A DNA stretch of 64,000 bases, from NCBI RefSeq assembly GCF_003992725.1, contig NZ_RZNF01000012.1, positions 1,178,001 to 1,242,000 of the forward strand. Direction: 5' to 3'. Below the pieces are notes generated by a model that saw only the letters and a program-made list of their open reading frames with translations, was not told the origin of the DNA and searched no databases. Source of the DNA: Rhodomicrobium lacus. GTDB lineage: Bacteria > Pseudomonadota > Alphaproteobacteria > Rhizobiales > Rhodomicrobiaceae. Shown piece by piece: positions 9,353 through 64,000 of the stretch (positions within the stretch are counted from its first letter, which is position 1; every line of letters begins with the position of its first letter). The position numbers were made by a program, and so were the translations under genes.

Positions 9353-10255
9353 TCAGGAAGCGCCCGTCTTCGCCAAAGCCGGCGGCGCAGCGGGAGCAGC
9401 GCTCCGTGTCGTCAGCAGCAACCCCGCTCCGATAATCGCGGCGCCGACGAAGGCGCGCGGTTCGAGCGGCGAGCCAAGCGCGATATTCGACAGGATCACC
9501 ACCCAAAACGGGTTCAGCAGGTGATAGGACGCCGCGCTCGCCGCTCCGCTCCAGCGGATGAGGAGAAGCCAGAGCACCGTCCCGCCGATGCTCACGATGA
9601 CGGTGAGATAGAGGATCGCAAGCGCCGCGGAGATCGTGAAGGTCGGCGTCGGCACGCCTTTCACGGCAAGCACGGGCAGGAGCGCGAGCGCGCCCGCCGT
9701 CGATTGCCAGAAATTGAGCGGGAGCACGGGAAGACCCGTCGCACGTCCGCGAAACATCACGGTGGCAATCGCGAAAGCGGTCGTGCCGCCGACCGCGAGC
9801 GCGACGCCGACGGCATCGCCCGTACTGATGTCGAAGCCGATGATGACGATCACGCCCGCAAAGCCGATCAGCACGCCCAGCGTCTTGATCGGGTCGAACC
9901 GCTCCTGCCTGAGCGCCACAGCGAAAAGGATCGCGAGGAACGGGGCGCAACTCACGATCACGCCCACCACGGCGGCCGAAGTGAAGGCAAGGGCGGAGAA
10001 ATTCAGGCCGAGATAGACCGCGTTGTTCAGCAGACCGAAGATGAGCCCCGTCTTCACGATGCGGGTGTTCCACGCCACCCCGTTCACGAGGCAGAACGGC
10101 GCCATGATCGCGGCGCTTAGCGCGAAGCGGATCACCAGCGTCAGAACGGGGTCTACATCCCGCACGGCGATCTTGCCGGCCACGAAGGCGGAACTCCAGA
10201 TCAGGCTGAAAAGGAGCACGAAGGCGATGAGGGCAGGGCGCGATATCTGTGTCAT
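9353..10255 (-). CDS. EamA/DMT-superfamily exporter
   Basis: The 300-residue hydrophobic protein has about ten transmembrane helices arranged as two EamA repeats. The first begins ALIAFVLLFSLIWSSAFVAGK and the second lies around GVALAVGGTTAFAIATVMFRG. Typical signatures are WSSAFVAGK near the N-terminus and SYHLLNPFWVVILSNIALG in the second half. The family exports amino acids and other small metabolites; the substrate cannot be read from sequence. I chose the ATG at 10255 (MTQISRP) over an upstream TTG at 10276. The gene diverges from a LysR regulator, the standard arrangement for a regulator controlling its neighbouring exporter. Confidence 0.9.
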   Translation of the reverse strand: MTQISRPALIAFVLLFSLIWSSAFVAGKIAVRDVDPVLTLVIRFALSAAIMAPFCLVNGVAWNTRIVKTGLIFGLLNNAVYLGLNFSALAFTSAAVVGVIVSCAPFLAILFAVALRQERFDPIKTLGVLIGFAGVIVIIGFDISTGDAVGVALAVGGTTAFAIATVMFRGRATGLPVLPLNFWQSTAGALALLPVLAVKGVPTPTFTISAALAILYLTVIVSIGGTVLWLLLIRWSGAASAASYHLLNPFWVVILSNIALGSPLEPRAFVGAAIIGAGLLLTTRSAAPAAPPALAKTGAS

Positions 10256-10391
10256 GAGCGAAGGATCGCAGGCCAATCGCTCATTGCAAAATTAATAATG
10301 ACGACGCAATAATAAGCGCAATTGATATGCGCTCGCGGCGGTTGGCCTTGCTTGAGCCAAGCGCATCGGGAAACAGCGAAGGAATCGCACC

Positions 10392-11324
10392 TTGGCCAAT
10401 ATCGCCGATACCGCGGCAACCCTTACCGACCGCCGCATCACGCTCGAACAGCTGCGCGCCTTCGTGATGGTGGCGGAAGGCGGCAGCTTTGCCGGTGCGA
10501 GCCTCGATCTCGGGCGCACGCAATCCGCCGTGACGCAAAGCCTGAAGAAGCTGGAGCAGATCCTCGATTGCGTGCTTCTGGAGCGTCGCCAGGGGCATTT
10601 CGCCGGGCTTACGCTTGAGGGCGCGCGGTTCCTGCCGATGGCAAAGGAAATTCTCGCCCGCCTCTCCGACGCGGTCGGCTCGTTTCAGCGTCCGCCGCTG
10701 GCCGGGCGCATCAGGCTTGGCGTGCCCGACGATTTCGACGTGCTGGACATCCACGGCGTCCTCTCGCGCTGCCTCGACATGAACCCGGACCTTCGCATCG
10801 AGGTGACGTCCGCCATGTCCGCCGCCGTCGTCGACATGTTCAACGCGGGCGAAATCGACGTCGCGCTGCTCAACCGCGCGCGCGGCGAAAGCCCGAATGT
10901 CGGCGGCGCGCCGCGAAAGGTGCTGCGCAGCGAGCCGCTGTTCTGGGTCGGGCGCGAGAAGACGCCGCTCGGCCAGTTTTCAACGGTGCCGCTGGTCGGC
11001 TTCCCCGACGGCTGCACCTACCGCAAGACGATGGTGCTCGCGATGCAGCGCGCGGGCAAGCCGTGCTACCTCGCCTACACAAGCTCGTCTTACGAGAACA
11101 TCCGCAAGGCGGTTTCGGCGGGCCTCGGCATCGCGGTGCTGCCGCGCGGCTCGGTCGGTCGCGACCACGCGGTCCTCGGCGCGGAGGAGGGCTTTCCGCC
11201 GCTGCCGGAAGCGGAACTCGTCATGGTCGCGAACGCGCGCGACGAGCTTTACCGCAAGTTCGCGGCCTTCCTCGAACGCTCGCCGAGCGTCGCCGACGCG
11301 GTACGGCGGCGCGCTGTGGCTTGA
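10392..11324 (+). CDS. LysR-type transcriptional regulator
   Basis: The protein has 310 residues. The winged HTH occupies about residues 15-75 (ITLEQLRAFVMVAEGGSFAGAS ... TQSAVTQSLKKLEQIL). The substrate-binding domain follows from about 100 (GRIRLGVPDDFDVLDIHGVL). The start is TTG at 10392, supported by GAAGGAA about 8 nt upstream; no ATG is suitably placed. It is divergent from the EamA exporter and probably regulates it. The 136-bp gap contains ATTGC and GCAAT half-sites (10284 onward) that could serve as a LysR operator, although a clear T-N11-A box is not certain. The inducer is unknown. Confidence 0.9.
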   Translation: MANIADTAATLTDRRITLEQLRAFVMVAEGGSFAGASLDLGRTQSAVTQSLKKLEQILDCVLLERRQGHFAGLTLEGARFLPMAKEILARLSDAVGSFQRPPLAGRIRLGVPDDFDVLDIHGVLSRCLDMNPDLRIEVTSAMSAAVVDMFNAGEIDVALLNRARGESPNVGGAPRKVLRSEPLFWVGREKTPLGQFSTVPLVGFPDGCTYRKTMVLAMQRAGKPCYLAYTSSSYENIRKAVSAGLGIAVLPRGSVGRDHAVLGAEEGFPPLPEAELVMVANARDELYRKFAAFLERSPSVADAVRRRAVA

Positions 11325-11361
11325 GGGGGCGGCGCATGTTATGCGTATTTGGCTTGCATCA

Positions 11362-11673
11362 CTAATTACTGCGCCTACTCATCACCTCTAATCGAAGTCG
11401 TGCGAGGATCTCAGTCATATTGAACGAGAGAGACGCGTATTCGGGAGACACTTGCTCTTGGCTGGAGCTTGCTAAGAAAAGCAACGCCTCCCCGGCCTGC
11501 CTAGCAAGTTTCACGACTTCATCGCCCGGCTCCAACCGGTTAGCGTTTGCCCATCGCTGAATAGCCGCCTCCGAAAGGGCAAAAAGCACTTCGTTTGGCC
11601 AGATGAGACGGTTGATTTCTTTTAGAACAGCGCGCTGTGCGTCCATCCTATTAGCGAAGCTATCGTTGATCAT
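11362..11673 (-). CDS. Small helical protein, third gene of the pentapeptide/nucleotidyltransferase island
   Basis: The 103-residue, mostly helical protein (MINDSFANRMDAQRAVLKEIN ... LARLRLEVMSRRSN) has no family I recognise. Its start overlaps the end of the nucleotidyltransferase gene by 14 bp, so the two are probably translated together. The protein is rich in Ala, Leu and Glu and shows no signal peptide or TM segment. It could be a partner subunit of the nucleotidyltransferase, since many MNT proteins work with a small helical protein. However, I see no R-x4-6-H motif that would make it a HEPN toxin. Codon use is more A+T-rich than in flanking genes. Confidence 0.65.
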   Translation of the reverse strand: MINDSFANRMDAQRAVLKEINRLIWPNEVLFALSEAAIQRWANANRLEPGDEVVKLARQAGEALLFLASSSQEQVSPEYASLSFNMTEILARLRLEVMSRRSN

Positions 11674-12298
11674 TCTCTCGATCTTTCAGGCGAGACATCC
11701 AATTTTCTAGAGCTGGAAGCGCTTTAAGAGCCTCAGATATTTCCGCTTGATCCAGCGGCGCTCCATATCCTCGAGTACTTAAGAGGCGCGCGCGTTCGAG
11801 AATACGATATATATTTAACTCTATAGGAGGATGATCACCCATCAAATCCAAGGCCACGCCTCTCGAAAAATTGGGGCACCCGCGTCCCAACAAGTAACAG
11901 CTGGAAAAATTTCGCAGGGCGAGAAATACGGCGGATAAATCAAAAACGATACTCCGGCTATCTTTTTCAGCAGAGTTCCTCGCCTGCCTAAATATCTCCA
12001 AAAAACGTTCGCAATCTTTATGGGTGTTATTGTAGGTAGCGGGAGAGCCAAGCGTGAAGAAAAAATCACGATCGTCACTGCCATAGATGAGCTTCGCTTC
12101 GAGGTGAAGATGCCAAGCGAAGGGGTTTCCATCCGCCCAAATTCGCGCGATTTTGGCGTGGGAATAAATAGAAAACATCGCCCGCGACAGTTGATTTGCA
12201 CTGCCTGTGGTTACGGCGAGCAAATCAACATCCGATCCGGGTAATATTTCGCCACGGCAGATCGACCCAAATGCATAAACGTGCAGCATCTCATTCAT
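11660..12298 (-). CDS. MNT-type nucleotidyltransferase-fold protein
   Basis: The protein has 212 residues from the ATG at 12298, which overlaps the TGA of the upstream gene as ATGA. The longer frame to 12436 would overlap that gene by 142 bp and is unlikely. The nucleotidyltransferase signature is complete at the extreme N-terminus: G11-S12 in YAFGSICRGE and D23-x-D25 in GSDVDLLAV. The remaining ~170 residues are helical (KDCERFLEIFRQARNSAEKD; FDLSAVFLALRNFSSCYLLG) and could be a substrate or partner domain. Relatives include aminoglycoside nucleotidyltransferases and MNT antitoxins that AMPylate HEPN toxins. The substrate cannot be assigned. Confidence 0.75.
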   Translation of the reverse strand: MNEMLHVYAFGSICRGEILPGSDVDLLAVTTGSANQLSRAMFSIYSHAKIARIWADGNPFAWHLHLEAKLIYGSDDRDFFFTLGSPATYNNTHKDCERFLEIFRQARNSAEKDSRSIVFDLSAVFLALRNFSSCYLLGRGCPNFSRGVALDLMGDHPPIELNIYRILERARLLSTRGYGAPLDQAEISEALKALPALENWMSRLKDRENDQR

Positions 12299-13305
12299 CG
12301 ACGATTGAAGCGTTTGACGAGTATCGACATGAATAGGCCAAAAAATGTGAGCCTGAGAACGGTGATAGCAGTGAGCCACTCTAAGGAAATGTATGAGGGT
12401 GCGCCCACGCCAAAGAAGATCTGCGGGGCGCGCCAAAGGGCGTCAAAAAGGACGTTCAAAGACAGCTGCATTGCGGCAGTTGCAAGGTCCAAGATCGCAA
12501 TAGCTACGATAAGGACGAGGACCGCCCTCAAAAGAGCAGAAAGGCTTTCACCATTGCCCCAGAGATAGTCTAGAAATTTGAATTTCGCCCAGAGCGAAAA
12601 CTGTTTAACGCGAATAAATACACTTTTGTACTTTTTACGATAATAATAATCGTTTGAACTCCAAGATTTGTAGAGATGGATTTCAGCGGCATCAAGTTCG
12701 ACGCGCATCGCTCGGTTGACGGCTGCGGCATCGCCAATTTGCTGAAAATTAGTGCGCAGGCTTCTAGCAAAGCGCATCTTATGATTTTCGTAAGCCGGGC
12801 AATTATCGTCTAAAATTGTATCATCAATGATTGTACGCTCGAACGTCGCGTAGTCGAAGATGCAGCCAATAAATCTAGCGCCATGCAAATTCGTCGAAGA
12901 AAACCTAGATCCTGTAAAATTACAGCTATCAAACTGACAGTCACGTAAATAGCACAAATCGAAGGTCGTGTTGGAAAAGTTTATCTTTCTAAATTTCTTT
13001 TTAATCGCCACGAATCTAATCAATTGAAGGTTCGACCAATCGTCGTCACCTATATCGTTTCGTAAGGCCTTATCTTTGTATTCGATGCGTTGACTTTCGC
13101 CCAGAAATGCAGAAAGTTTTGTAGCTCGCTCACCCAGCAGATCCGCCGCAGCCGGCCCCGACACAAATTTAGATGGCGCATCAGGTTTCCAAAAGCGTGC
13201 ATCATGCACGCTGACCTCTTCTTCGGTTTGGTCAGGCATGTCCATTCCTGTAGGCAAGGCTAAGTTGTCAAAATCGACGGCATATAAAAAGCTAAGGCTA
13301 TTCAT
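12295..13305 (-). CDS. Pentapeptide-repeat protein with C-terminal membrane segments
   Basis: The protein has 336 residues. Residues about 105-165 are pentapeptide-type repeats (INFSNTTFDLCYLRDCQFDSCNF ... GARFIGCIFDYATFERT), which fold as a right-handed quadrilateral beta-helix. A helical linker follows (NEW segments such as DAAEIHLYKSW), then two hydrophobic segments: LLRAVLVLIVAIAILDL (about 258-275) and WLTAITVLRLTFFGLFMSILV (about 310-330). The C-terminal layout resembles pentapeptide proteins fused to a two-TM channel-like domain, but no K+-channel filter is visible. The start at 13305 has a weak RBS; MDMPDQ at 13239 has AGGA at good spacing and may be the real start. It is the first gene of a three-gene overlapping unit. 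Confidence 0.75.
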   Translation of the reverse strand: MNSLSFLYAVDFDNLALPTGMDMPDQTEEEVSVHDARFWKPDAPSKFVSGPAAADLLGERATKLSAFLGESQRIEYKDKALRNDIGDDDWSNLQLIRFVAIKKKFRKINFSNTTFDLCYLRDCQFDSCNFTGSRFSSTNLHGARFIGCIFDYATFERTIIDDTILDDNCPAYENHKMRFARSLRTNFQQIGDAAAVNRAMRVELDAAEIHLYKSWSSNDYYYRKKYKSVFIRVKQFSLWAKFKFLDYLWGNGESLSALLRAVLVLIVAIAILDLATAAMQLSLNVLFDALWRAPQIFFGVGAPSYISLEWLTAITVLRLTFFGLFMSILVKRFNRR

Positions 13306-14960: not shown

Positions 14961-16153
14961 CCGGCGAACCGAAAGGCCGCGCGCCCGCGGCATTCAATCT
15001 CGACGATCCCAGGCTCTCGGCGGATCTGCCGCTGCGGGATGAAGCGCCCGCGCCCGGGCCGGATGCGCCAAAAGCGCCGCCAGCATCGTCTCGCGTGGAA
15101 CCCGAACAGAACCGGCCCGCTGCCGCCGCCTCGCAGGGCGCACAGCCGGGCGCGAAGCCGCGCGCTGCCGGGCCGCAGCCGAACGCGGCGGCGCCCGCCC
15201 CCGCGCCTTCGGATCAGCCCACCGCAACGACGGCAGAGCCGCCCGAAAAGGCGATCTCGCGTACGCGGAAATGGGGCGGCCTCTTCCTGTCGGCGGTGGG
15301 CGGGCTCGTCGTGCTCGCCGTCCTCATCTGGGTGCAGGACACATTCCTGACGCTTCTCGGACGCCAAGACTGGATCGGCTGGGCAGCAACGATCCTGCTG
15401 GCGGTCGCCGTCTTCTCCTTCGCCATGATCCTCGCGCGCGAAATCGGGGGACTTGCCCGGCTGTCGGCCATGACGACGGTCCGCAAGCGCGCCGACTCCG
15501 CGCTCATGGTCGAAGACACGAAGCAGGCGCGCGTCGCGGCAGGCGAAATCCGCGCGATCTTCGCCGAACGGCGCGAACTCGCCGACGGCCTCGCGCGGCT
15601 CAAGAAGCACGAGCGCGACATCATGGACGCGAAGCAGGTTCTGAGCCTGACGGAGCGCGAGCTGCTGGTGCCGCTCGACAAGCTCGCGCGCGTCACCATC
15701 GGCTCGTCCGGCCGCCGCGTGCTGACCGTGACGACGCTGTCGCCCGCCGCGATCATCTCGGTCGGTTTCGTCGCCTACGAAAATTTCCGCATGCTCCGAA
15801 ATCTCGCCTCGATCTATGGCGGTCGGCCCGGCTTCTTCGCGATCCTGAAGCTGATGCGGCTGATCGCGGGACACCTCGCGCTCACGGGCGGCATCGCCTT
15901 TACCGACGACATCCTGTCTCAGGTGCTCGGCCACGGACTGACCGCGCGCGTCTCGAAGCGCCTTGGTGAGGGTCTCATCAACGGCGGCTTCACCATGCGC
16001 ATCGGCCTCGCGGCGGTGGAGGTGCTGCGGCCGCTGCCCTATGTGGAGGCGAAGCAGCCGCGCTTCCGCGAGTTCGTGTCCGAGTTCCTGAAGGTCGGGC
16101 ACCGCTTCGCGGGGGAGATCACGCCGGAAGGGAAAGAACGAGGGCGAGGCTGA
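14957..16153 (+). CDS. TIGR01620 / YcjF-like inner-membrane protein (DUF697)
   Basis: The protein has 398 residues. An N-terminal ~100-residue Pro/Ala-rich cytoplasmic region is followed by two TM helices, [20 protein letters not shown] (about 110-130) and [18 protein letters not shown] (about 142-160). A helical stretch then leads to a DUF697-like region ending [19 protein letters not shown]. This matches the TIGR01620/YcjF family, which follows ycjX in many proteobacteria. Its start overlaps the ycjX stop by 4 bp. Its 3' end overlaps the convergent yeiH gene by 35 bp. The function is unknown beyond a presumed envelope-stress role shared with YcjX. Confidence 0.92.
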
Positions 16154-17198
16154 ATGCCGCGATGAAAACGCTCGCGCAGGCGGCCAAAGCCAGAGGACGC
16201 AGCCCCTTCGCCGCGAGCTTGCGGAAACTTGTTTCGAGCCCCATCGCGCCGAGCGCCATGGTAAGCAGCACCATCGTCAGCGTGCCGAAACCGCCCCGCA
16301 CCTCCGCCGGAATATCCACTACGCTGCTGAAGAGCGTGAGGGCCACGAAGCCGAGCACGAACCAGGGCATCGGCACCGAGGCACGCGCGCCATCTTCGCC
16401 CGCCGAGGCGCGCCGCGGGACGATGAAACCGAGCGTCAGCACGAGAGGAGCCAGCATCATCACGCGGCTCAGCTTGGCTATGGTTCCATACTCGCCCGCT
16501 TGCTGGCCGGCCTGGAACGTAGCGGCGACCACCTGGGCGATCTCGTGGATCGACGCGCCCGCCCATAGGCCATAGCTCTGCGGACCCAGGCCGAGCATCG
16601 CTGGCAGCATGGGATAGACGAACATTGCGATGGAGCCGAACAACGTGACGCAGGCGACCGCGTAGGCCACGTCTTCGTCATGCGCGTTCGTGACCGTGTT
16701 CGTGGCGATGACCGCCGAAGCGCCACAGATTGACGTGCCCGCTGCGATCAGTTCCGCGAGCTTCTGCTCCACGCCGAGCATGCGGCCAAGCCATTTCGTG
16801 AAGACAAACGTCGCGACGAGCGATGCTGCTATGATCGCGACACCGGCACCGCCAACTGCCGCGACCTGACCGACCGTGAGTTGAAGGCCGAGAAGCACGA
16901 TGCCCATGCGCAGCAGCTTGCGCATGGAAAACTGCACACCTTCCCTTGCCCGCGATGGCGTACCGAACAGATTGTGAAACGCCATACCGAGCACGATTGC
17001 GAGGATCAGCGGGCTGAAGGTTTTGACGCCCGGAATTTCCCACAGCGCGAAGGACGCGCCCGTGATCGTTCCGACGAGGAACAACCCCGGCCAGATGGTT
17101 TGACCGGCGTGATGCCGGAGGCTGCGGTGCAAGCGATGAAAGCGACGCGCTTTGCGCAAATCGCCTTCATCTTGAAATACAATTTCGGTATTCGCCAC
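16119..17198 (-). CDS. yeiH: YeiH family putative sulfate exporter
   Basis: The protein has 359 residues from a GTG at 17198, which is preceded by GAGG at good spacing; an in-frame ATG at 17246 is the alternative. About ten TM helices are visible. Diagnostic YeiH/UPF0324 segments are [17 protein letters not shown] (matching GAGSSICGAAAVLATEPV of E. coli YeiH), [13 protein letters not shown] and [14 protein letters not shown]. The family is annotated as a sulfate exporter on limited evidence. An apparent long ORF fuses it to the LysR gene upstream; this is an artefact of a frameshift there. In E. coli, yeiH lies next to the LysR gene yeiE, the same pairing as here. Confidence 0.88.
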
Positions 17199-17308
17199 GA
17201 TTGACCTCAGGAATTTCCTTAATGGTCGCCCATGCGAAATGATCATTCCAACAAATTGTTGATGTCGTTTTGATCTGAAAATGAGAATGATCAGTGGGAA
17301 AGGAGTTT

Positions 17309-18182
17309 CTACTCGACCAGATCCAGCAGCGCGCGTTCCGCCCGGCTGATACTCCGCTCCTTGTGCCGGGCGACGTAGAACGGGCGTTCCGGTAACGGCA
17401 GAGATACAAACGCGAGCGTACCTGCGCTCAGGAGCGGCTCCGCCACAAGGTCGGATATCGCCGCCGCCCCCCGCACCGGCACGGACTGCCGCACACACGG
17501 CTTCGTTCGATGGCAGTTCCATCGCCACCTTGAGAGACGTGGAGTCCACACCAAGCCCCCGCAAAGCATCCAGAAAGATCGCGCGCGTGCCGGAGCCCGG
17601 CTCACGCATCACCCACGGACCTTGCATCAGATCTTCCGGGGCCACGTTTCGACCACTCCATTCGTGCCGGGGACTGACGACGACCACCAGCCTGTCACCC
17701 TTCACAGCCTTCAGCCGCAAGGCCGGATTGTCGATGTTGCCTTCCGCAAAGCCGATATCGGCAAATCCCTCGCTCACAGCCGCAGCCACCTCTTCCGTGT
17801 TACCGATTGCAAGCTGGACCGAGACCCCTGGATACGCCACGCGAAAGCGGTGGAGTAACGGCGGCAGCCAGTAATTCGCAATGGTCTGGCTTGCAAACAA
17901 TGACAAGGTGCCCGCCATGCACCCTGCAAGATCGTGCAGCACGCGTTCTGCTGCGGCGCTTCGCGCGAGCACTGCGCGCGCCTCGGAGAGGAAAAGACGC
18001 CCCGCGTCCGTCAGTTCGATGCGCCGTCCGATGCGATGGAAAAGCCGGGTATCATAGCGGGCCTCCAGCGCCGCGATGGCCGCGCTTGCCGCAGACTGGG
18101 TGATATGAATCGCCTCGGCTGCGCGCGTCATGTGCTCCCGCTCGGCCACGGCGACGAAAATGCGTAATTGCTCAAGTGTCAT
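17309..18182 (-). pseudogene. YeiE-like LysR regulator with a one-base frameshift
   Basis: The N-terminal HTH ([22 protein letters not shown] ... [16 protein letters not shown]) and most of the effector domain are intact up to [18 protein letters not shown] (near 17470). There a run of six C (17467-17472) shifts the frame. Removing one C restores [26 protein letters not shown] ... LLDLVE, which matches the expected C-terminus, and gives 290 residues, close to E. coli YeiE (293). In the sequence as given the frame continues instead through the gap into yeiH. A homopolymer site makes a sequencing error plausible, so the gene may be intact in the organism. It is the likely regulator of yeiH. Confidence 0.85.
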
Positions 18183-18324
18183 GTCAATGCCGCCGCTTTC
18201 CGTTGCCGGGCCATTGTATGGTGCTCCCGGAAACAGATACAGCGGCAACGGGGAACGAGGCTGAACCCCGCCCGTTCACTCTCCAAAACGCCGCCCTGCG
18301 GTGCACACCGAGGAGAGATTCCAA

Positions 18325-49925: not shown

Positions 49926-50675
49926 TCACTGGGCTCTGTAGACGATTGCGCCTGAAATCTTGTATGTCCGCGAGCCAAGCGCAGGCGGTGTCGGGAACGG
50001 CGCGGAACGCGCCAGGGCTTCCGCTGCGGCGCGATCCATCACGGCGTTGCCGGAGCTTCCTACCGACTTGGAGATGAGTTCCCCGCCTGAGCCGATTACG
50101 ATTGAATAACTGATGCGAACCGACTGTCCGCGCGAGAGCGCCGACTTCGGGAAGCTTCCGCTCGCGACGCGATTGATCCGCTGGTACACCTTGTTGGCGT
50201 AGTCAGTCGGGATCGCGCCCGGCGTCGGCGTGGCGGACCGGGGCTTAGGTTTCGCGACGGGCTTCGGCGGTTCCACCGGCTTGGGCTTGATCTCCTCCTT
50301 GACCGGCTCAGGCGGCTTCTCGGGCTCGGGCAGAGGCTCAGGCAACGGCTCCGGCGTGGGTTCCGGAATGGGCTCCGGCTGGGGTTCCGGTTCTGGCGGC
50401 GGAGGGGGCTGCTCGGGTTCCTCCGGCGCTGCCGGTTCTTCATAGACCATGTCCACCGGCGCTTCGAGAACAGCGGGTGGCGAGCTGAAGTCGATCGTGA
50501 GAAGGGCGGTCAGGGCGGCCACGTAAACGCCAATACCGAGTATGGTCAGCGTTACCGGTGGTCGCCGCGTCCCGATGCCGAGCAGCACGGCTGGAACCGC
50601 AGGCGACAACTCCCCTTTCTCCGTAGCGCCAAGCGGCTGGCTATCGTACAGGCTGCCAGTAATTTCAACATTCAT
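49926..50675 (-). CDS. tonB: TonB energy transducer (system 1)
   Basis: The protein has 249 residues from the ATG at 50675; a longer frame to 50714 is unlikely. The N-terminal TM anchor is VTLTILGIGVYVAALTALLTI (about 41-61). It is followed by a Pro-Glu/Pro-Lys-rich periplasm-spanning region (PEPEPQPEPIPEPTPEPLPEP ... KPKPVEPPKPVAKPKP, about 80-155). The C-terminal domain is VRISYSIVIGSGGELISKSVGSSGNAVMDRAAAEAL ending in SGAIVYRAQ. It would energise outer-membrane TonB-dependent receptors, none of which is in the window. Order tonB-exbB-exbD. The gene upstream on the same strand is an arylsulfatase. Confidence 0.92.
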   Translation of the reverse strand: MNVEITGSLYDSQPLGATEKGELSPAVPAVLLGIGTRRPPVTLTILGIGVYVAALTALLTIDFSSPPAVLEAPVDMVYEEPAAPEEPEQPPPPPEPEPQPEPIPEPTPEPLPEPLPEPEKPPEPVKEEIKPKPVEPPKPVAKPKPRSATPTPGAIPTDYANKVYQRINRVASGSFPKSALSRGQSVRISYSIVIGSGGELISKSVGSSGNAVMDRAAAEALARSAPFPTPPALGSRTYKISGAIVYRAQ

Positions 50676-50797
50676 GCTCTGAACCCCGATCGGACGAGCC
50701 GACCGCTCACGCACGCATCCGCCCTGCGATGTGCCGCCATTTCGTCATCCCTTCCGAAGCACGGCGTGAGCGATCCAGCTTGCCATTTCGTCCGTCG

Positions 50798-56252: not shown

Positions 56253-57977
56253 GTGAGTTTTGGGCAAAAAAGGCGAGGGCGGAGCGCTCCGCCCCGAAAA
56301 GCTGCGTGCCTGATGGCCGCAGTCGCGATTGTTGGCGGGATGTCGCCGGAGTTGGGGATTGCCGCTGAAAAGGCGCAGCTTCCCGTCGGGAAAGGCGCAG
56401 GAAACACAGTTTCTCCTTCGGCGCCATCTGCCGAGCCGCAGAATTTCGATATCGATGAATTCCGCGTCGATGGGGCTGAAAAGCTTCAGCAAATCGAGGT
56501 CGAGGAAGCGATTTATCCGTTTCTTGGCCCCGATCGCACGCCGGCAGACGTCGAGAAGGCGCGCGCTGCTCTCGAAAAGCATTACCACGAGAAAGGCTTT
56601 CAGACCGTCAGCGTCAGCATTCCGCCGCAGAACGTTTCAACACGGATTGTGGTGCTCAAGGTTACCGAGGGCAAGGTGGGACGCCTCCGGGTCACCAACT
56701 CGAACTACCACGATATTGAGAAGATCAAGAAGAAGGCGCCGTCGCTGAAAGAAGGCACGCTGCCGAACTTCAGTGACGTCACGCAAGACATTATAGCGCT
56801 CAACCAGTGGCCGGATCGTCGCGTTACGCCTGTGCTAAGGGCGGGTGTCACGCCCGGTACAGTGGATGTCGATCTCAATGTCGAGGACAAGCTGCCGCTG
56901 CATGGCAACGTCGAGTTCAATAACCGAGCTTCCCCCAACACCACGCCAACCAGGATCAATACCACACTCAAATACGATAATCTTTGGCAACGCGGGCATT
57001 CGCTGAGCGTCACATATCAGGTAGCTCCCGAGCGTCCAGACGATGCGGAGGTCTTCTCCGGCTCCTATCTGGCGCGCGTTACAGACTGGACCAGCATCCT
57101 CGTTTACGGCGTCAAATCGAGCAGCAACATCTCCACGGTGGGTGGCATGACCGTCATTGGGCCCGGCGAAACCGTCGGCGCACGCGCCATTCTGACACTC
57201 CCACCGCGCGAGAATTACTTCCATTCCTTTTCAGCGGGCTTCGATTACAAGCACTTCGCGCAGATGACGTTGCTCGAAAAAGAGGGGTTCTCGTCACCGG
57301 TCTCGTATGTTCCGTTAAGCGCGACCTATAGCGGAACGCTGCAAACGGACGGCGGCCTGACTCAGTTCAGCATCGGAGCGGTGGGCAATCTCCGCGAATT
57401 GAGCAGCGATTGGGAGGAGTTCGCCAATCGGCGCGCATACTCGAATGCCAACTTCTTCCATTTGAACGCCGAACTCTCCCATACCCAAGACATATGGGAA
57501 GGGTTCCAGCTCTATGGTCGCGTCAAGGGGCAATATTCCGATAGCCCGATGGTTTCCAGCGAACAGTTCAGCATCGGCGGCGCCGACACCGTTCGCGGCT
57601 ATCTCGAAAGCCAGGCCATTGTCGACAACGGTGTGGTTGGCTCATTCGAGCTGAGAAGCCCCGACATCGGGGCGATCCTGCAAAGTTACATCAAGGACAG
57701 TGCAGGCAAGGATGAGGCTGGCAAAGACCAGCTTCCGTTCACGGTTTTCAACGAGTGGCGGCTGTTCGGTTTCGTCGATGGGGGCGCGGGGTACATCCAT
57801 AACCCGCTCGCCGAGCAGGAAGCCAACTTCGACCTGTGGAGCTACGGCGTAGGCTCGCGCTTCAAGATTTTCGATCATCTGACTGGCGTGGCGGCCCTCG
57901 CCGTGCCGATGACAAACCAGGGCGAAACGCGAAAGGACGGCAAGACCGTCCTCTTCAGCGTAAGCGGCGAATTCTAG
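56253..57977 (+). CDS. TpsB/FhaC/ShlB-like outer-membrane POTRA-barrel protein
   Basis: The protein has 574 residues and a GTG start at 56253 after GGGGG. A signal peptide (LMAAVAIVGGMSPELGIAA-E) is followed by one or two POTRA domains (FDIDEFRVDGAEKLQQIEVEEAIYPFLG ... FQTVSVSIPPQNVSTRIVVLKVTEGKVGRLRV, about 65-150). The 16-strand barrel carries the VRGY tetrad in ADTVRGYLESQ (about 447) and FVDGGAGYI (about 508). It is the transporter half of two-partner secretion, but no TpsA substrate gene is adjacent. Instead the next genes are ExbB, ExbD and TonB homologues 17 nt downstream, an unusual pairing. Confidence 0.88.
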   Translation: MSFGQKRRGRSAPPRKAACLMAAVAIVGGMSPELGIAAEKAQLPVGKGAGNTVSPSAPSAEPQNFDIDEFRVDGAEKLQQIEVEEAIYPFLGPDRTPADVEKARAALEKHYHEKGFQTVSVSIPPQNVSTRIVVLKVTEGKVGRLRVTNSNYHDIEKIKKKAPSLKEGTLPNFSDVTQDIIALNQWPDRRVTPVLRAGVTPGTVDVDLNVEDKLPLHGNVEFNNRASPNTTPTRINTTLKYDNLWQRGHSLSVTYQVAPERPDDAEVFSGSYLARVTDWTSILVYGVKSSSNISTVGGMTVIGPGETVGARAILTLPPRENYFHSFSAGFDYKHFAQMTLLEKEGFSSPVSYVPLSATYSGTLQTDGGLTQFSIGAVGNLRELSSDWEEFANRRAYSNANFFHLNAELSHTQDIWEGFQLYGRVKGQYSDSPMVSSEQFSIGGADTVRGYLESQAIVDNGVVGSFELRSPDIGAILQSYIKDSAGKDEAGKDQLPFTVFNEWRLFGFVDGGAGYIHNPLAEQEANFDLWSYGVGSRFKIFDHLTGVAALAVPMTNQGETRKDGKTVLFSVSGEF

Positions 57978-57994
57978 AACCGAGGAAAGTTTCC

Positions 57995-60064
57995 ATGTTT
58001 TGCAAGAGATTACTCGCGGCAGTTTCGCCAACTCACAAGGCTGGCCTGAGAATGCGCATCGCGCGCCTGAGCTTCGCTATCGCCGCAGCCACCTTGACGC
58101 TGACGAACCAGGCGGCAGCATGGTGGAACGACGAATGGACGATGCGCAAGCAGATCACCGTCGATACCAGTGCAAGCGGCGCGAACATTACGGATGCGAT
58201 CGGAACCAGCCCGGTCCTGATACGCCTCCATGCCGGCAACTTTCGCTTCGCCGCGTCAAAAGCGGATGGCAGCGACCTGCGTTTCGTTGCTGGCGACGAC
58301 AAGACGCCCCTCAAATATCACATTGAAAGATACGACTCGCTGCTTGGCGAAGGGTTGGTTTGGCTGAATCTTCCGAATGTTCAGCCGGGATCGAAAATTA
58401 ACGTCTGGCTCTATTATGGAAACCAGAAAGCCCTTGCCGCGCCGGATGCCAAAGGTACTTACGACGCCGATACGGTGCTCGTGTACCACTTCGCCGAGAG
58501 GGGCATACCCGCAACCGATTCCTCCGCATGGGCCAACAATTCCCAGGACGCGGGCCAAGCTGCCAACGGGTCTCTCATCGGCTCGGGATTGCGCCTCGAC
58601 GGCAAAGCAACGCTGACGCTTCCGGCTACGCCGTCGCTCGCGCTGGCGGAAGGCGCCTCCTTCTCCTGGTCTGCGTGGATCAAGCCCGCTGCGCTTCAGC
58701 GCAATGCAGCTATCTATAGCCGCAAGGACACCCGAAACGGCGTCGTTATCGGTCTGGATGATGGCGCGCCTTTCGTAGAAATCACGAAGGATGGAGTTGG
58801 GCAGCGTTCGTCGGCAGGCGTCCCTGTTGCGCCGGGCGGCTGGCATCACATCGGCGTCTCGGCAACGCCCGGTCTTATCACGCTTTATCTTGACGGCGCT
58901 CCTTATGCGACTTTGAACGCGTCTCTTCCCGCTTTGAACGTCGTTGCGAAACTCGGCGGCGATACGGCGATAGCCGTGCCGGCCGTAACGCCTGAGGTCG
59001 CGTCTGAACCGGCAGCGGCCGCTCCCGCTGCGGATGGAACGGCGGCAGAAGGAACCGCTACCGCCGAAGCGACTGCGGAAACCACCGCCCCGGCTGCTCC
59101 GGTCGTTCCTGCCCCCGTTGCTCCTGCTCCCGTGGCGGCAGCTGGATTCATCGGCGATATCGATGAACTGCAGATCTCCAAGAATGCGCGCGGCGCAGGC
59201 TTCATCAAATTCGCTGCCACTCAGCAGGGCCCAGCTCCTTCGAAGCTTCTTTCCTTCAGCGTCGACGAGGAAACGTCGAGCTGGCTGTCGGGCTACTTCG
59301 GCATTCTTCTGAAGGCTGTCACGCTCGATGGATGGGTCATCATCGGCTTCCTCGGCCTCATGGCGCTGTTGGGCTGGATCGTGATGATCGAAAAGCACGG
59401 CTACCTGAAGCGTCAGAGCCGCGCGAACGACATCTTCTCTCCGGCCTTCCGTAACCTCGGCGAAGACATCACCGCGATGGTCGAGAGGGAGGGGTTGGCC
59501 GTGTTGACGGGCGAGAACGCACGCGAGAATGTGAAAAAGCACGCAAAGGCTCGCGCCTACGTGCAAAAGAACTCGTCGCTTTGCAGGCTGTATGAAACCG
59601 GCGTCGCCGAAATCCGCAAGTTCGTCCCCGAGGGAGACAACGGGACAACCCTGAACGCGGAAGCGATTGCGTCTATTCGAGCCACGCTGGACGGCTGCGT
59701 CATCCGCGAAATGCAGGCGTTGAACCGGCAGATAGTCGTTCTTACGCTATCGATCGCGGGCGGCCCGTTCCTCGGCCTGCTCGGCACGGTCATCGGCGTG
59801 ATGATTACCTTCGCTTCAATCGCGATGACCGGTGATGTGAACATCAACGCGATAGCGCCTGGCATCGCGGGTGCGCTGATGGCGACGGTTGCAGGTCTCG
59901 CCGTCGCGATCCCAGCGCTGTTTGGCTACAATTGGCTGACGCTGCGCATCAAGAACCTGACCTCCGACATGCAAGCCTTCGTCGACGAGTTCGTCGCGAA
60001 AATCGCCGTGACATACGGCAAAGGCCGCCCGTCGCCGGTGGTCGCACGCATGGCGGCGGAGTAG
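57995..60064 (+). CDS. DUF2341-LamG-MotA/TolQ/ExbB fusion protein
   Basis: The protein has 689 residues from the ATG at 57995 (GAGGAAA upstream). After a signal peptide (FAIAAATLTLTNQAAA) comes DUF2341 (WWNDEWTMRKQITVDTS, DLRFVAGDDKTPLKYHIERYD, INVWLYYGN; about 43-145). A LamG/concanavalin-like domain follows (SFSWSAWIKPAALQRNAAIYSR, GGWHHIGVSATPGLITLYLDGAPYATL, GFIGDIDELQISKNARG; about 165-400), interrupted by an Ala/Pro/Glu-rich linker. Last comes an ExbB domain (about 440-680) with WVIIGFLGLMALLGWIVMIEK, GGPFLGLLGTVIGVMITFASIAM and IAPGIAGALMATVAGLAVAIPALFGYN. The proton channel thus carries a large periplasmic sugar- or protein-binding head. Confidence 0.92.
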   Translation: MFCKRLLAAVSPTHKAGLRMRIARLSFAIAAATLTLTNQAAAWWNDEWTMRKQITVDTSASGANITDAIGTSPVLIRLHAGNFRFAASKADGSDLRFVAGDDKTPLKYHIERYDSLLGEGLVWLNLPNVQPGSKINVWLYYGNQKALAAPDAKGTYDADTVLVYHFAERGIPATDSSAWANNSQDAGQAANGSLIGSGLRLDGKATLTLPATPSLALAEGASFSWSAWIKPAALQRNAAIYSRKDTRNGVVIGLDDGAPFVEITKDGVGQRSSAGVPVAPGGWHHIGVSATPGLITLYLDGAPYATLNASLPALNVVAKLGGDTAIAVPAVTPEVASEPAAAAPAADGTAAEGTATAEATAETTAPAAPVVPAPVAPAPVAAAGFIGDIDELQISKNARGAGFIKFAATQQGPAPSKLLSFSVDEETSSWLSGYFGILLKAVTLDGWVIIGFLGLMALLGWIVMIEKHGYLKRQSRANDIFSPAFRNLGEDITAMVEREGLAVLTGENARENVKKHAKARAYVQKNSSLCRLYETGVAEIRKFVPEGDNGTTLNAEAIASIRATLDGCVIREMQALNRQIVVLTLSIAGGPFLGLLGTVIGVMITFASIAMTGDVNINAIAPGIAGALMATVAGLAVAIPALFGYNWLTLRIKNLTSDMQAFVDEFVAKIAVTYGKGRPSPVVARMAAE

Positions 60065-60068
60065 CGCC

Positions 60069-60476
60069 ATGCAGGTTCAGGCCGACGACAACAAGCCCTA
60101 CGACGAGATCAACGTCACGCCGATGCTCGATCTCGCCTACGTGCTGCTCATCATCTTCATCGTGATGACCACGGCGACGGTGCAGGGAATGAAGGTCAAT
60201 CTTCCAAAGGCGTCCGCTGCTCCGAGCCTCGCTCAGCAGACCACGAAGGCGATCACCGTGGGAAACGACGGCAAGATCTTCCTCGACACCATTCCGGTGA
60301 CGCTGACGGAACTTGAACAGCGGCTCGTGCAACAGAAGGCTCTCACGCCCGATTTTCCGGTGGTTCTACGTGGCGACGCGCAGACCCAGTACCAGAACGT
60401 CATGGATGTGCTGGACCTGCTAGGCCGCCTCAGCATCACGCAGGTTGGTCTTGCAACGAAGCCGCTCGTGAAATGA
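60069..60476 (+). CDS. exbD: ExbD-type biopolymer transport protein (system 2)
   Basis: The protein has 135 residues and starts 4 bp after the ExbB-fusion stop. The TM helix with the proton-carrying Asp is EINVTPMLDLAYVLLIIFIVMTT (about 13-35; D21). The periplasmic domain includes VNLPKASAAPS, KAITVGNDGKIFLDTIPVTLTELEQRL and FPVVLRGDAQTQYQNVMDVLDLLGRLSITQVGLAT. It would complete the ion channel with the DUF2341-ExbB protein. Its stop overlaps the start of a tiny bridging ORF as ATGA. Confidence 0.94.
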   Translation: MQVQADDNKPYDEINVTPMLDLAYVLLIIFIVMTTATVQGMKVNLPKASAAPSLAQQTTKAITVGNDGKIFLDTIPVTLTELEQRLVQQKALTPDFPVVLRGDAQTQYQNVMDVLDLLGRLSITQVGLATKPLVK

Positions 60477-60529
60477 GGCTCGTCGTGACGATGTCAGAGA
60501 AACAGCGCCAGACGGGGGGGTTGTCATGA
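60473..60529 (+). CDS. 18-codon bridging ORF between exbD and tonB
   Basis: ATG at 60473 overlaps the exbD stop (ATGA) and its own stop overlaps the tonB ATG at 60526 (ATGA). The product would be MRLVVTMSEKQRQTGGLS. It contains the GGGGGGG that serves as the tonB ribosome-binding site. The perfect double overlap suggests a translational-coupling device more than a functional peptide. Confidence 0.4.
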   Translation: MRLVVTMSEKQRQTGGLS

Positions 60530-61317
60530 CCGATCCGCGCGATTTGCCCGACGAGAGCAAGGGCGTACACGGCGATCCCTACGGCCAGTTGACTGAAGCT
60601 GAAGAGAACGCGCTCGAAAGCGGCGAGCAGTCCTTCGCTCGCAGACATGGACCGGCAATAGCCGTGGGTCTCGGTGCGTTGCTCGTGGGTGCGACCGTGT
60701 TCGCGTTATTTCTCTCCGGAGATACGCCGCAAGCTCGAAAGGTGCAGGACTTCACGATCGTCGCCGTTGTGCCGCCTCCTCCGCCGCCTCCTCCGCCGCC
60801 CATGCAGCAGCTATCGCCGCCAGAGCAGGAGATGATCGAGCAGCCGAAAATGGTCGAGCCCGAGATCAAGCAGGAGGCGCAGGTTGAAGAACCGAAGGAC
60901 GCGCCGCCGGAAGCGAGCGACGCGCCGCCTGATGGACCGTTGGGACTGGACCAGGCCGCCGAAGGCCCGGGCGATGCTTTCAATCTCGCTGGCAAGCCGG
61001 GAGGCCGGGGCATTCTCGGCGGCGGTGGCGGCGGCAGCCGCTGGGGCTGGTATGCCACCATCGTGCAGCAACAGATCGAGGCCGCTCTCCGACAGAACCC
61101 GAAGACGCGCAACGTCATTCTGCAGGTTCAGGTCCGCCTTTGGGCTGACCGGAGCGGCCGCATAGACCGCGTCCAGCTCGTTTCTTCGACGGGCGACGTT
61201 GAGGTGGACGCGGCCATCCGCAGCGAAGTGCTACCGGGCATAGCTCTTCGCGAACCGCCACCGTCGGACATGCCGATGCCGATCGTGGCTCGAATTACGG
61301 CGCGCCGATCAGGCTGA
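60526..61317 (+). CDS. TonB-like energy transducer (system 2)
   Basis: The protein has 263 residues. A cytoplasmic N-terminus of about 42 residues precedes the TM anchor (IAVGLGALLVGATVFALFL, about 45-63). A Pro-run (VVPPPPPPPPPPMQQLSPPEQ, about 80-100) and an acidic Pro/Glu linker follow, then a Gly-rich stretch (GGRGILGGGGGGSRWGWYATIVQQQIEAALRQNP). The TonB C-terminal domain ends QVQVRLWADRSGRIDRVQLVSSTGDVEVDAAI ... IVARITARRSG. The poly-Gly hinge and long cytoplasmic tail differ from system 1. It belongs to the TpsB-ExbB-fusion operon and may couple to the TpsB-like pore or the porin. Confidence 0.88.
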   Translation: MTDPRDLPDESKGVHGDPYGQLTEAEENALESGEQSFARRHGPAIAVGLGALLVGATVFALFLSGDTPQARKVQDFTIVAVVPPPPPPPPPPMQQLSPPEQEMIEQPKMVEPEIKQEAQVEEPKDAPPEASDAPPDGPLGLDQAAEGPGDAFNLAGKPGGRGILGGGGGGSRWGWYATIVQQQIEAALRQNPKTRNVILQVQVRLWADRSGRIDRVQLVSSTGDVEVDAAIRSEVLPGIALREPPPSDMPMPIVARITARRSG

Positions 61318-61379
61318 CGGCGGCGCACAGACTACGGGGCAAACGAAATCTGACGGCACTTAATCGATGGGTGGGACTA

Positions 61380-63308
61380 ATGTTTGACGTGAACTCTTTC
61401 GCGGGCCGACTGCGAGCGCCGCTCGCAACGGTTTCAATGCTGGCGCTCTGCGTGGCAGGAATGGGACAGGCGCTGGCGCAGAGCTATGCGCCGGGCGGGA
61501 CCTCTGTCGTCAAGAAAACCGAAGAAAATCCGACAAGTGTATCGAAGAAAAAACCGACGTCATCGAGCGCAACCGTCAATCTGGTAAATGCGCTTGTTGC
61601 TCAGGGCGTGCTGAAGCCCGAGCAGGCGGAAGCCTTGATCAAGCAGGCTGAAGACGAGGCCTATGTGTCGCGCGAGGCGGCTAAGGGTGCCACGACGAAG
61701 GCCGACGAAGCCGCAAAGGCCGCTTCAGCCGCCGCGTCCGCAGCAAACCCTCCCGGCAGCCGGCGTGTCACCTACGTGCCCGAGGTGGTCAAGCGCGAGT
61801 TGCGCGAGGATGTACGCAAGGAAGTGATGGCGAAAGCCGAAAAAGAGGGTTGGGCGTCGCCCGGCAAATACCCGGAATGGGCTTCGCGCGTGCGCGTTTA
61901 TGGCGACATTCGAGGTCGCTATGAAGGACAGTTTTTTCCTGGAGGCTACAACTCCACCGGGCAGATCTTCGACTTCAACGCGATCAACACCGGTTCGCCT
62001 TATGACCTTTCCTCAGGCAACTCTTACTACGCACCGCTGCTGAACACGAGCAAGGACCGGGAGCGCTATCGCCTTCGGGCCCGCATCGGCGCGGAAGCCG
62101 ATCTCGGAGACGGCTTTACCACAAACATCCGCCTCGCGACGGGTTCGGACAACTCGCCCGTCTCCACCAATCAAACGCTCGGGGGCTCGGGAGGCAATTT
62201 TTCGAAATACGCAGTCTGGCTCGACCGCGCGTCGATAAGCTGGGAGCCCTTCAGGCACTCGCGTTTCGCGCCATACGCTGGATATGACCCGCTTGCGAGC
62301 CTGACCGGGACCGGAGACGGCTATTACGGTTACAAGGACAGCGCTCCGGAACGGCTGAGTTCGGTTGCGATCACACTCGGTCGTTTCGACAATCCATTCT
62401 GGTCCCCCACAGAGCTTGTCTGGGACAGCGACCTTGGTTTCGACGGCGCTTCGATCACGGCCCGCCGTGAAATCGTGCCGGATTTCACACCGTTCCTCGT
62501 GGCTGGTGCATTCCCGATCTTCAATACGAGCCTCGATTTTTCGTCGACGCAAACCACCAAGTACGACAGCCAAGACAAATACCTTTTCGGCGCGCAAACC
62601 GGCCTGACCTGGCAGGCTACGCAGACTGCCGGGTTGACGGTTGGAGCGGGCCTCTTCGACTTCAGCAACGTGCAGGGACGGCGGTCCAGCGCTTGCTACA
62701 TTGAAGAAACGAAGGATTGCGACACCGATCATTTGCGGCCTTCATTCGCGCAGAAGGGTAACACATACATAAAGCTGCGCAATGTTCAGCATTCTGATGC
62801 AACACTTACCACCGAGCCTCAATATTTCGGGCTCGCAAGCGAATACAGGCCAGCCGTCTTCGCCGGCAGGGTCGATTTCGGCTATTTCCATCCGATAAGC
62901 ATCCTGCTCGATGGCGAATTCGTCTGGAACACGGCGTTCGACCGTAAAGCTATGGATACGCTCGTCGCTGACGGACAAGTGCAGAACAACCTCAAGAACG
63001 GCAGGTACGACGGCGGCAACATCGGCTGGCTCACCCGCCTCACCGTCGGTCACAAGAAGCTCGAAGCCTTCGGGGACTGGAATGTGAATGTCGGTTACAA
63101 GTATCTCGAATCCGATGCGACGCTTGATGCTTTCGTCGACAGCGATTTCGGCCTCGGCGGAACAAATTTGAAGGGCTATTTCATCGGCGGCAATTTCGCA
63201 TTTACCAAAAGCGTCTCCGCCTCGGCGAAGTGGATGAGCGCGGATGCTGTCGGCGGCGCGCCCTATGCTGTCGACGTGGTTCAGGTCGATCTCAACGCGA
63301 AGTTCTGA
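61380..63308 (+). CDS. Large outer-membrane porin (putative porin/Porin_5-like)
   Basis: The protein has 642 residues from the ATG at 61380 (GGGTGGGA upstream). A signal peptide (LATVSMLALCVAGMGQALA-QS) is followed by a periplasmic helical region (LVNALVAQGVLKPEQAEALIKQAEDEAYVSREAAKGATTKADEAAKAASAA). The barrel then runs from WASRVRVYGDIRGRYEGQFF to the C-terminal VVQVDLNAKF with terminal Phe, and contains the repeated amphipathic strands typical of porins (ERYRLRARIGAEADLGDGFTTNIRLATGSDNSP). There is no plug domain or TonB box, so it is not a classical TonB-dependent receptor. It lies between tonB and the coiled-coil gene. Confidence 0.85.
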   Translation: MFDVNSFAGRLRAPLATVSMLALCVAGMGQALAQSYAPGGTSVVKKTEENPTSVSKKKPTSSSATVNLVNALVAQGVLKPEQAEALIKQAEDEAYVSREAAKGATTKADEAAKAASAAASAANPPGSRRVTYVPEVVKRELREDVRKEVMAKAEKEGWASPGKYPEWASRVRVYGDIRGRYEGQFFPGGYNSTGQIFDFNAINTGSPYDLSSGNSYYAPLLNTSKDRERYRLRARIGAEADLGDGFTTNIRLATGSDNSPVSTNQTLGGSGGNFSKYAVWLDRASISWEPFRHSRFAPYAGYDPLASLTGTGDGYYGYKDSAPERLSSVAITLGRFDNPFWSPTELVWDSDLGFDGASITARREIVPDFTPFLVAGAFPIFNTSLDFSSTQTTKYDSQDKYLFGAQTGLTWQATQTAGLTVGAGLFDFSNVQGRRSSACYIEETKDCDTDHLRPSFAQKGNTYIKLRNVQHSDATLTTEPQYFGLASEYRPAVFAGRVDFGYFHPISILLDGEFVWNTAFDRKAMDTLVADGQVQNNLKNGRYDGGNIGWLTRLTVGHKKLEAFGDWNVNVGYKYLESDATLDAFVDSDFGLGGTNLKGYFIGGNFAFTKSVSASAKWMSADAVGGAPYAVDVVQVDLNAKF

Positions 63309-63310
63309 CC

Positions 63311-63928
63311 ATGAAAAACTCCCCCGACCGTTCGAAAGCGCAGCTTCCGCTCGCTGTTGTTGCTCTTGCCACCGCAGCGCTCTCTCTGCCCGCGCACGCA
63401 GACTCTGAAGTTGATCGGCTGCGCGAGGCTTTGAGAACACTCACGACGCAGGTTCGCTCGCTTGAGGATCAGCGCACCTCAATGCAGGCGCAGCTTACGG
63501 AAACGACTCGCGCCCGCGACGCGCTCAAGGCCGATGTGGCCCGGGCCAAGGAAATCGCGAAGAAGGCGGAAGCCGATTATCGCACCGCCGTCAAGGAGTT
63601 CAATGAGCGCCTCGAAGAGAGAAACCAGACGCTCGAAAAGTGGAAGGAAGCCTACGCAGAAGCAGCAACGGTTGCGCGGACGAAGGATGCCGAACGCGCG
63701 AAATTCGAGACCGATGCAAACAGCTGCAAAGCGAGCATGAAAACCTGCACGCTAAAAAACAAGGAACTCGTAAAAATTGGACGCGAGCTTCTCTATCATT
63801 ATGAAGGTGTCACATTCGGTGATGTAGTTATCGCAAGAGAGCCGATAGTCGGCTATCGACGCGTTGAAATACAGAGCTTCCTCCAGGAGTTTGGGGACAA
63901 GGTTCTGAACCAGAAAGTCGATCCGTGA
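63311..63928 (+). CDS. Periplasmic coiled-coil protein
   Basis: The protein has 205 residues and starts 2 bp after the porin stop. The signal peptide is LPLAVVALATAALSLPAHA-DS. Residues about 32-150 form a long coiled coil (VDRLREALRTLTTQVRSLEDQRTSMQAQLTETTRARDALKADVARAKEIAKKAEADYRTAVKEFNERLEERNQTLEKWKEAY). Two Cys lie at CKASMKTCTLKN, and the C-terminal globular end reads HYEGVTFGDVVIAREPIVGYRRVEIQSFLQ. It could act as a periplasmic spacer between the TonB/ExbB complex and the outer membrane. Unknown function, but clearly part of the operon. Confidence 0.8.
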   Translation: MKNSPDRSKAQLPLAVVALATAALSLPAHADSEVDRLREALRTLTTQVRSLEDQRTSMQAQLTETTRARDALKADVARAKEIAKKAEADYRTAVKEFNERLEERNQTLEKWKEAYAEAATVARTKDAERAKFETDANSCKASMKTCTLKNKELVKIGRELLYHYEGVTFGDVVIAREPIVGYRRVEIQSFLQEFGDKVLNQKVDP

Positions 63929-63935
63929 GGTTACC

Positions 63936-64000
63936 ATGTCGTTTTTTTTACTGTATACACCGAAACGCGACGGGCGAAGCCGCACCGCAGCAATTACGAG
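63936..64000 (+). CDS. Start of the next operon gene (partial, runs off right edge)
   Basis: ATG at 63936 has GTGAGG 5 nt upstream and lies 7 nt after the coiled-coil gene's stop. The frame is open to the window end (MSFFLLYTPKRDGRSRTAAIT). Only 21 codons are visible, so no function can be proposed. Confidence 0.45.
   Translation, partial: MSFFLLYTPKRDGRSRTAAIT

What the first reader, a model, noticed from the sequence alone, without database searches (positions are those of the whole stretch)
56253..63928. TonB/ExbB/ExbD operon built around a TpsB-like pore and a DUF2341-LamG-ExbB fusion
Seen: seven consecutive plus-strand genes with gaps from overlap to about 60 bp encode an outer-membrane POTRA barrel, a proton channel with a large lectin-like periplasmic head, ExbD, TonB, a porin and a periplasmic coiled coil. 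Known: TpsB pores normally work without energy and beside a TpsA gene; TonB normally energises plug-containing receptors. Neither partner is present. Inference: this is a dedicated TonB-powered machine for secretion or for surface glycan/protein handling, with the LamG head sensing a ligand and gating the channel.
Basis: partly seen in the sequence, partly recalled or inferred. Interest (0 to 1): 0.82.

Follow-up and report, generated by a model that had tools for sequence, protein, structure and literature searches.

The report
Protein-export pore with its own motor
The genes make a known type of bacterial export system for a giant surface protein, fitted with its own proton-driven motor; the exported protein, which lies just past the window, ends in a short conserved tag that the motor may grip, which would be surprising because such export is thought to need no motor.

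Summary
The genes are real: TpsB, a DUF2341-LamG-ExbB fusion, ExbD, TonB, Porin_5 and a coiled coil (six genes, not seven). The premise "no TpsA" is a window-edge artefact. The operon continues (PpiC, YbjN, a soluble TonB-like domain, SLT, VreA-like STN-TonB, ECF sigma, FecR) into an intact 4381-aa TpsA, the only TPS-domain protein found in the genome, beside its only ShlB. This is the layout of P. aeruginosa PUMA3/pdtAB-exbB2-exbD2-tonB4, where the Ton genes are called uncharacterised. New here: (1) the motor is co-inherited with one passenger type, TpsA with DUF3739: 14 of 14 genomes with it and 0 of 127 other TPS genomes. (2) The six-gene order holds in 70 of 80 named loci; none of the ten exceptions shows a different system. 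(3) DUF3739 passengers end in an isolated motif, PS[IV][IF]xV[EQR]V[LI]G[FY]G, found in 41 of 43 and absent from 13 control passengers. It persists in a genome without VreA. (4) TonB, VreA and the soluble protein share a C-terminal domain. Best reading: a motor-equipped two-partner secretion subtype whose TonB probably handles the passenger's own C-terminus. The first part is well supported; the TonB-motif contact is inferred.

The parts
56253..57977 (+). TpsB (ShlB/FhaC-type two-POTRA outer-membrane transporter); the only ShlB-family protein found in the genome
57992..60064 (+). DUF2341-LamG-ExbB fusion: signal peptide, periplasmic lectin-like head, TolQ/ExbB-like channel
58265..58534 (+). 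DUF2341 domain of the fusion
58610..58921 (+). Laminin_G_3 (ConA-like lectin fold) domain of the fusion
59660..59974 (+). MotA/TolQ/ExbB channel domain; the two channel threonines (T599, T632 of the protein) are invariant in 16 relatives
60069..60476 (+). ExbD/TolR, channel Asp kept (NVTPMLD)
60526..61317 (+). TonB-like energy transducer (tonB4 type): one TM, proline-rich spacer, Gly run, C-terminal domain about 61048-61275
61371..63308 (+). Porin_5: predicted helical periplasmic stalk and 16-stranded barrel without plug; nearest solved fold OmpM1
63311..63928 (+). Secreted periplasmic coiled-coil protein, conserved at this place in relatives
63936..64000 (+). Start of the PpiC-type peptidyl-prolyl isomerase gene, cut by the window end (whole gene L003:7936-9003). 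The operon goes on outside the window, all on +: YbjN L003:9076-9636; soluble TonB-like domain 9633-10055; SLT 10063-10800; VreA-like STN-TonB 10946-11686; ECF sigma 11726-12268; FecR 12303-13301; TpsA L006:1357-14502 (4381 aa; TPS domain aa 140-364, DUF3739 aa 4169-4279, C-terminal motif STIIIVEVLGFGG aa 4313-4325). L003 position + 56000 = continued window numbering.

Best explanation
A complete PUMA3-type two-partner secretion (TPS) locus with its own Ton motor. TpsB exports one class of giant beta-helical passenger (TpsA with a C-terminal DUF3739). A dedicated proton-driven motor (ExbB with a periplasmic DUF2341-LamG head, ExbD, TonB), a stalked porin, a coiled coil and a PpiC isomerase travel with it. 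VreA/sigma/FecR control expression, one set per passenger in most lineages examined. Mechanism (inferred): after most of TpsA has left through TpsB, its unfolded tail stays in the periplasm. [quoted passage not shown] The soluble TonB-like protein and VreA would compete for or read out the same motif. Shown: gene content, co-inheritance, the motif, and the homology of the three C-terminal domains. Inferred: TonB-motif binding, and the direction and use of the force. Confidence is about 0.95 for what the locus is and about 0.4 for the motor acting on the passenger's tail; the figure below covers both.
For: TpsA next door with TPS domain and DUF3739, the only one found in the genome. Among 398 phylum genomes, 141 have a TPS domain and 14 have DUF3739. 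The same 14 have the DUF2341-ExbB, the 14th cut by a contig edge; no other genome has it (Fisher p about 1e-19 without phylogenetic correction). A class-level sample of 385 gives the same 5 of 5. The six-gene order is present in 70 of 80 named loci across alpha-, beta- and gammaproteobacteria and Verrucomicrobia. In three lineages tpsA sits directly before the fusion gene. One motor accompanies up to nine passengers in one genome; those whose tails were read share the motif but not the rest of the tail. Motif: 41 of 43 DUF3739 tails score 10.5-42 bits; 13 control passengers score at most -3.9 in the tail; six closed non-DUF3739 passengers from the motor genomes also lack it. It is an island, about 2.4-4.3 bits per column against about 1 to 1.5 in the flanks. 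A genome with no full VreA-like match, only its TonB, still has the motif. TonB domains homologous, E 5e-17 and 3e-20. Precedents: FusB binds its substrate directly (PMC7593965); Ton-dependent secretion of PopC (PMC6434023).
Against: No binding, complex model or phenotype is shown. The motif's likeness to a TonB box is judged by eye. Related sequences inflate the motif statistics, and two tails from one genome are weak or lack it (L046, L051). TonB C-terminal domains diverge strongly between the alpha- and betaproteobacterial members (24-33% identity). The SxxxH signature of TonB/TolA transmembrane helices is absent in all 73 relatives checked, so the motor may not run like E. coli Ton. In P. 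aeruginosa vreA was not needed for sigma-VreI activation (PMC4971064), and single tpsB or tonB-homologue mutants kept virulence in fish (PMC2729926).
Confidence: 0.55

Rival explanations
1. The Ton motor energises the stalked porin, a nutrient channel or anchor, and the passenger only shares the operon.
For: The porin directly follows TonB in nearly all loci. Full-length Porin_5 is in 15 of 15 motor genomes and at best one weak distant hit in 15 others. A conserved segment, PGSxxVxYVPE, lies just before the barrel and could serve as a contact.
Against: The model shows an open 16-stranded barrel with a helical stalk and no plug to pull; the nearest fold is the anchoring porin OmpM1. This does not explain the tie to DUF3739 passengers or their motif.
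Confidence: 0.2
2. The motor acts on TpsB, pulling out its plug helix to open the pore.
For: tpsB is immediately upstream of the fusion gene in 75 of 80 loci.
Against: The region before the first POTRA is not conserved and carries no motif. In two lineages with tpsB and tpsA adjacent, tpsA, not tpsB, precedes the fusion gene.
Confidence: 0.1
3. The Ton genes serve signalling: TonB feeds force or ligand state to VreA, which controls sigma/FecR.
For: VreA carries the same C-terminal domain as TonB, and most passengers have their own VreA-sigma-FecR set.
Against: A genome with motor, passenger and motif has no full VreA-like match. [quoted passage not shown] aeruginosa (PMC4971064, PMC7035377).
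Confidence: 0.1
4. The C-terminal motif is read by VreA or the soluble TonB-like protein as a stalled-export sensor, and the motor has another job.
For: All three domains are homologous.
Against: The motif persists in a genome where the search found neither.
Confidence: 0.1

Closest known systems
P. aeruginosa PUMA3 locus: vreAIR, pdtA, phdA, pdtB, exbB2, exbD2, tonB4, PA0696-PA0701 (PMC2729926, PMC4971064, PMC7035377)
   Same: TpsA, TpsB, ExbB, ExbD, TonB, putative porin, a further protein, YbjN and PpiC in one regulated locus; VreA with STN and TolA/TonB-like domains; sigma and FecR
   Different: P. aeruginosa has an Hxc type II system and phdA in the locus. Whether PA0693 bears the DUF2341-LamG head and PdtA the C-terminal motif was not tested here. 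Papers call the Ton genes uncharacterised, and no paper in the library mentions DUF3739.
Classical two-partner secretion (FhaB/FhaC, PMC5422565, PMC9355242)
   Same: TPS-domain passenger and two-POTRA TpsB
   Different: Classical systems have no motor and are described as working without external energy; control passengers here lack the motif, and their genomes lack DUF3739.
Ton and Tol motors (E. coli ExbBD-TonB, TolQRA)
   Same: Channel threonines, ExbD aspartate, TonB-type C-terminal domain; TolQ/ExbB fold
   Different: Lectin-like periplasmic head on ExbB, no SxxxH in the TonB helix, no plug-type receptor in the locus.
FusB and Oar/PopC (PMC7593965, PMC6434023)
   Same: Precedents for a TonB protein binding the transported protein directly, and for Ton-dependent secretion
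   Different: Both use plug-type TonB-dependent transporters, and FusB works in import.

Membership tests
Two-partner secretion (type Vb) | TpsB with POTRA domains and ShlB-type barrel | tested here: met
   POTRA_2 and ShlB over cut-off; the second POTRA is inferred from length and alignment
Two-partner secretion (type Vb) | TpsA with N-terminal TPS domain and signal sequence | tested here: met
   (signal sequence judged by eye)
Two-partner secretion (type Vb) | TpsA is secreted through this TpsB | not testable with these tools
   only TpsA and only TpsB found in the genome, same locus; no experiment
PUMA3 / pdtAB-exbB2D2-tonB4 type locus | tpsB-exbB-exbD-tonB-porin-next protein in one operon, with PpiC and YbjN | tested here: met
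   compared with the gene list in PMC7035377
PUMA3 / pdtAB-exbB2D2-tonB4 type locus | VreA (STN plus TonB-like domain), ECF sigma and FecR with the TPS genes | tested here: met
Ton/Tol motor | Conserved channel residues of ExbB and ExbD | tested here: met
   invariant T599 and T632; NVTPMLD; the ExbB glutamate before the second threonine (E. coli E176, from memory) is Gly/Ala here
Ton/Tol motor | SxxxH in the TonB/TolA transmembrane helix (from memory) | tested here: not met
   0 of 73 relatives
TonB-dependent transporter system | Plug-containing receptor in the locus | tested here: not met
   none among the locus genes; Porin_5 model has no plug
TonB box | Short strand-forming motif that binds the TonB C-terminal domain | not testable with these tools
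   motif found; binding not tested

The most novel reading that the evidence does not exclude
A motor-driven form of two-partner secretion: the passenger itself carries a C-terminal TonB-box-like tag, and a dedicated Ton motor pulls on it from inside to control the last step of export (tethering, release or clearance). That would be force applied to the substrate of a pathway held to be energy-free.
Probability: 0.38. Interest if true: 0.87.

Novelty: new variant of a known kind. Interest (0 to 1): 0.64.

Why it matters
Type Vb secretion is described as needing no external energy. A whole subtype, spread over several proteobacterial classes and Verrucomicrobia and including the P. aeruginosa PdtAB relative, never appears without its own proton-driven motor in the genomes sampled. 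The conserved passenger tag names a concrete contact to test and gives a function to test for exbB2-exbD2-tonB4, DUF3739 and the DUF2341-ExbB fusion. The fusion is otherwise listed only as an ExbB-type appendage of unknown role (PMC12505986).

Tried and rejected
TpsB without a partner: rejected, TpsA lies just outside the window. The one apparent exception to co-inheritance (G641): explained by a contig edge through the fusion gene. Other DUF2341 hits in four class genomes: weak matches, in the proteins read without the channel, not this system. A motif in TpsB, porin, ExbB, ExbD, TonB or the coiled coil: none scores. Structure of the TonB-motif complex: single chains only. No P. aeruginosa locus came up among the 80 kept, so PdtA's tail could not be read. 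No paper in the library mentions DUF3739.

Full report
Observation. The fusion is genuine: DUF2341, a laminin-G-like domain and a MotA/TolQ/ExbB channel in one reading frame, conserved as a fusion in the 16 sequences aligned.

What the window hid. Reading on past the window end gives PpiC, YbjN, a small secreted TonB-like protein, a lytic transglycosylase, a VreA-like STN protein, an ECF sigma factor and a FecR protein. Then comes an intact 4381-residue TpsA with a TPS domain and, near its end, DUF3739. It is the only TPS-domain protein found in the genome, and the operon's TpsB the only ShlB. The inference that rested on a missing partner falls.

What it is. The layout matches the P. aeruginosa PUMA3 regulon: vreAIR, pdtA, and a transcript phdA-pdtB-exbB2D2-tonB4-PA0696-PA0701 (PMC2729926, PMC4971064). 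In the gene table of PMC7035377 PA0696 is a putative porin, PA0698 a YbjN protein and PA0699 a peptidyl-prolyl isomerase. That paper calls pdtAB a functional two-partner system and the Ton genes a still uncharacterised putative TonB system. VreA's TolA/TonB-like half was also known (PMC2729926).

Co-inheritance. In 398 genomes of the phylum a TPS domain occurs in 141, DUF3739 in 14 and DUF2341 in 13, all among the 14. The fourteenth, G641, has the fusion gene cut by a contig edge. None of the other 127 TPS genomes has it. The class sample gives the same five genomes for DUF3739 over cut-off and strong DUF2341. Fisher p values are about 1e-19 and 1e-11 but ignore shared ancestry. Porin_5 follows the same pattern. 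One scan of named genomes found over 560 relatives. In the best 80, from Bradyrhizobium, Hyphomicrobium, Burkholderia, Pandoraea, Variovorax, Dyella, Solimonas, Verrucomicrobia and others, the order TpsB-fusion-ExbD-TonB-porin-coiled coil holds in 70. Seven of the other ten lack downstream genes, as expected of contigs that end there. The remaining three show split frames (L087, L096) or one swapped pair of labels (L100).

Passengers and motor. Genomes have up to nine DUF3739 passengers and usually one motor. Away from the motor, passengers have their own VreA-sigma-FecR set just upstream in most cases examined: six in G355 plus one more on the motor contig, and three each in G560 and G725. 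In G399, G707 and G087 the passenger gene sits directly before the fusion gene, and a VreA profile finds only the TonB gene and one weak partial hit in G399. So the motor goes with the passenger and the signalling set is optional.

The motif. DUF3739 passengers end in a variable Ala/Gln/Ser-rich linker, then PS[IV][IF]xV[EQR]V[LI]G[FY]G, then a variable charged tail. Leave-one-out scores are 10.5-42 bits in 41 of 43 tails. Thirteen passengers from genomes without DUF3739 reach at most -3.9 in the last 260 residues. Six closed non-DUF3739 passengers from the motor genomes themselves also lack it. Column information is about 2.4-4.3 bits inside and about 1 to 1.5 bits in the nearest flanks. A second, weaker copy (VQVLGxG) lies in many of the longer tails. 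Where the tail is short the motif is at or close to the C-terminus.

Candidate partners. TonB, the soluble protein and VreA share a homologous C-terminal domain (hhalign E 5e-17 and 3e-20). TpsB has no conserved segment before its first POTRA. The porin has a conserved segment before the barrel but no plug in its model, and resembles OmpM1. The head of the fusion is predicted as a lectin-like jelly roll on a TolQ/ExbB-like channel. Channel residues of ExbB and ExbD are kept. The SxxxH pattern of the TonB helix is not.

Reading. The identification as a PUMA3-type, motor-equipped TPS locus is secure. That the motor acts on the passenger's C-terminus is the best single account of the co-inheritance, the shared tag and the precedents (FusB, PMC7593965; PopC, PMC6434023), but no contact was shown. 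The porin as motor target is the main rival.

Noticed in passing
window 16119-18248 (-): One 709-aa frame joins a LysR regulator with a truncated substrate domain to a YeiH-type PF03601 transporter: a fusion or a deletion junction.
   Followed up: no
L006:14824-16262: Transposase-like gene split over two overlapping frames just downstream of tpsA.
   Followed up: no
L006:16812-18998: Large secreted frame downstream of the transposase that looks like a phosphatase-autotransporter (by eye).
   Followed up: no
window 49926-50714 (-): A second, ordinary TonB beside a sulfatase, on the other strand from the operon.
   Followed up: no
L003:9633-10055 and relatives: A free periplasmic TonB C-terminal domain without membrane anchor, conserved in many of these loci.
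   Followed up: partly
L194 (G517:C5): G517 carries two separate motor loci and the most divergent passenger tails, the only ones weak in the motif.
   Followed up: partly
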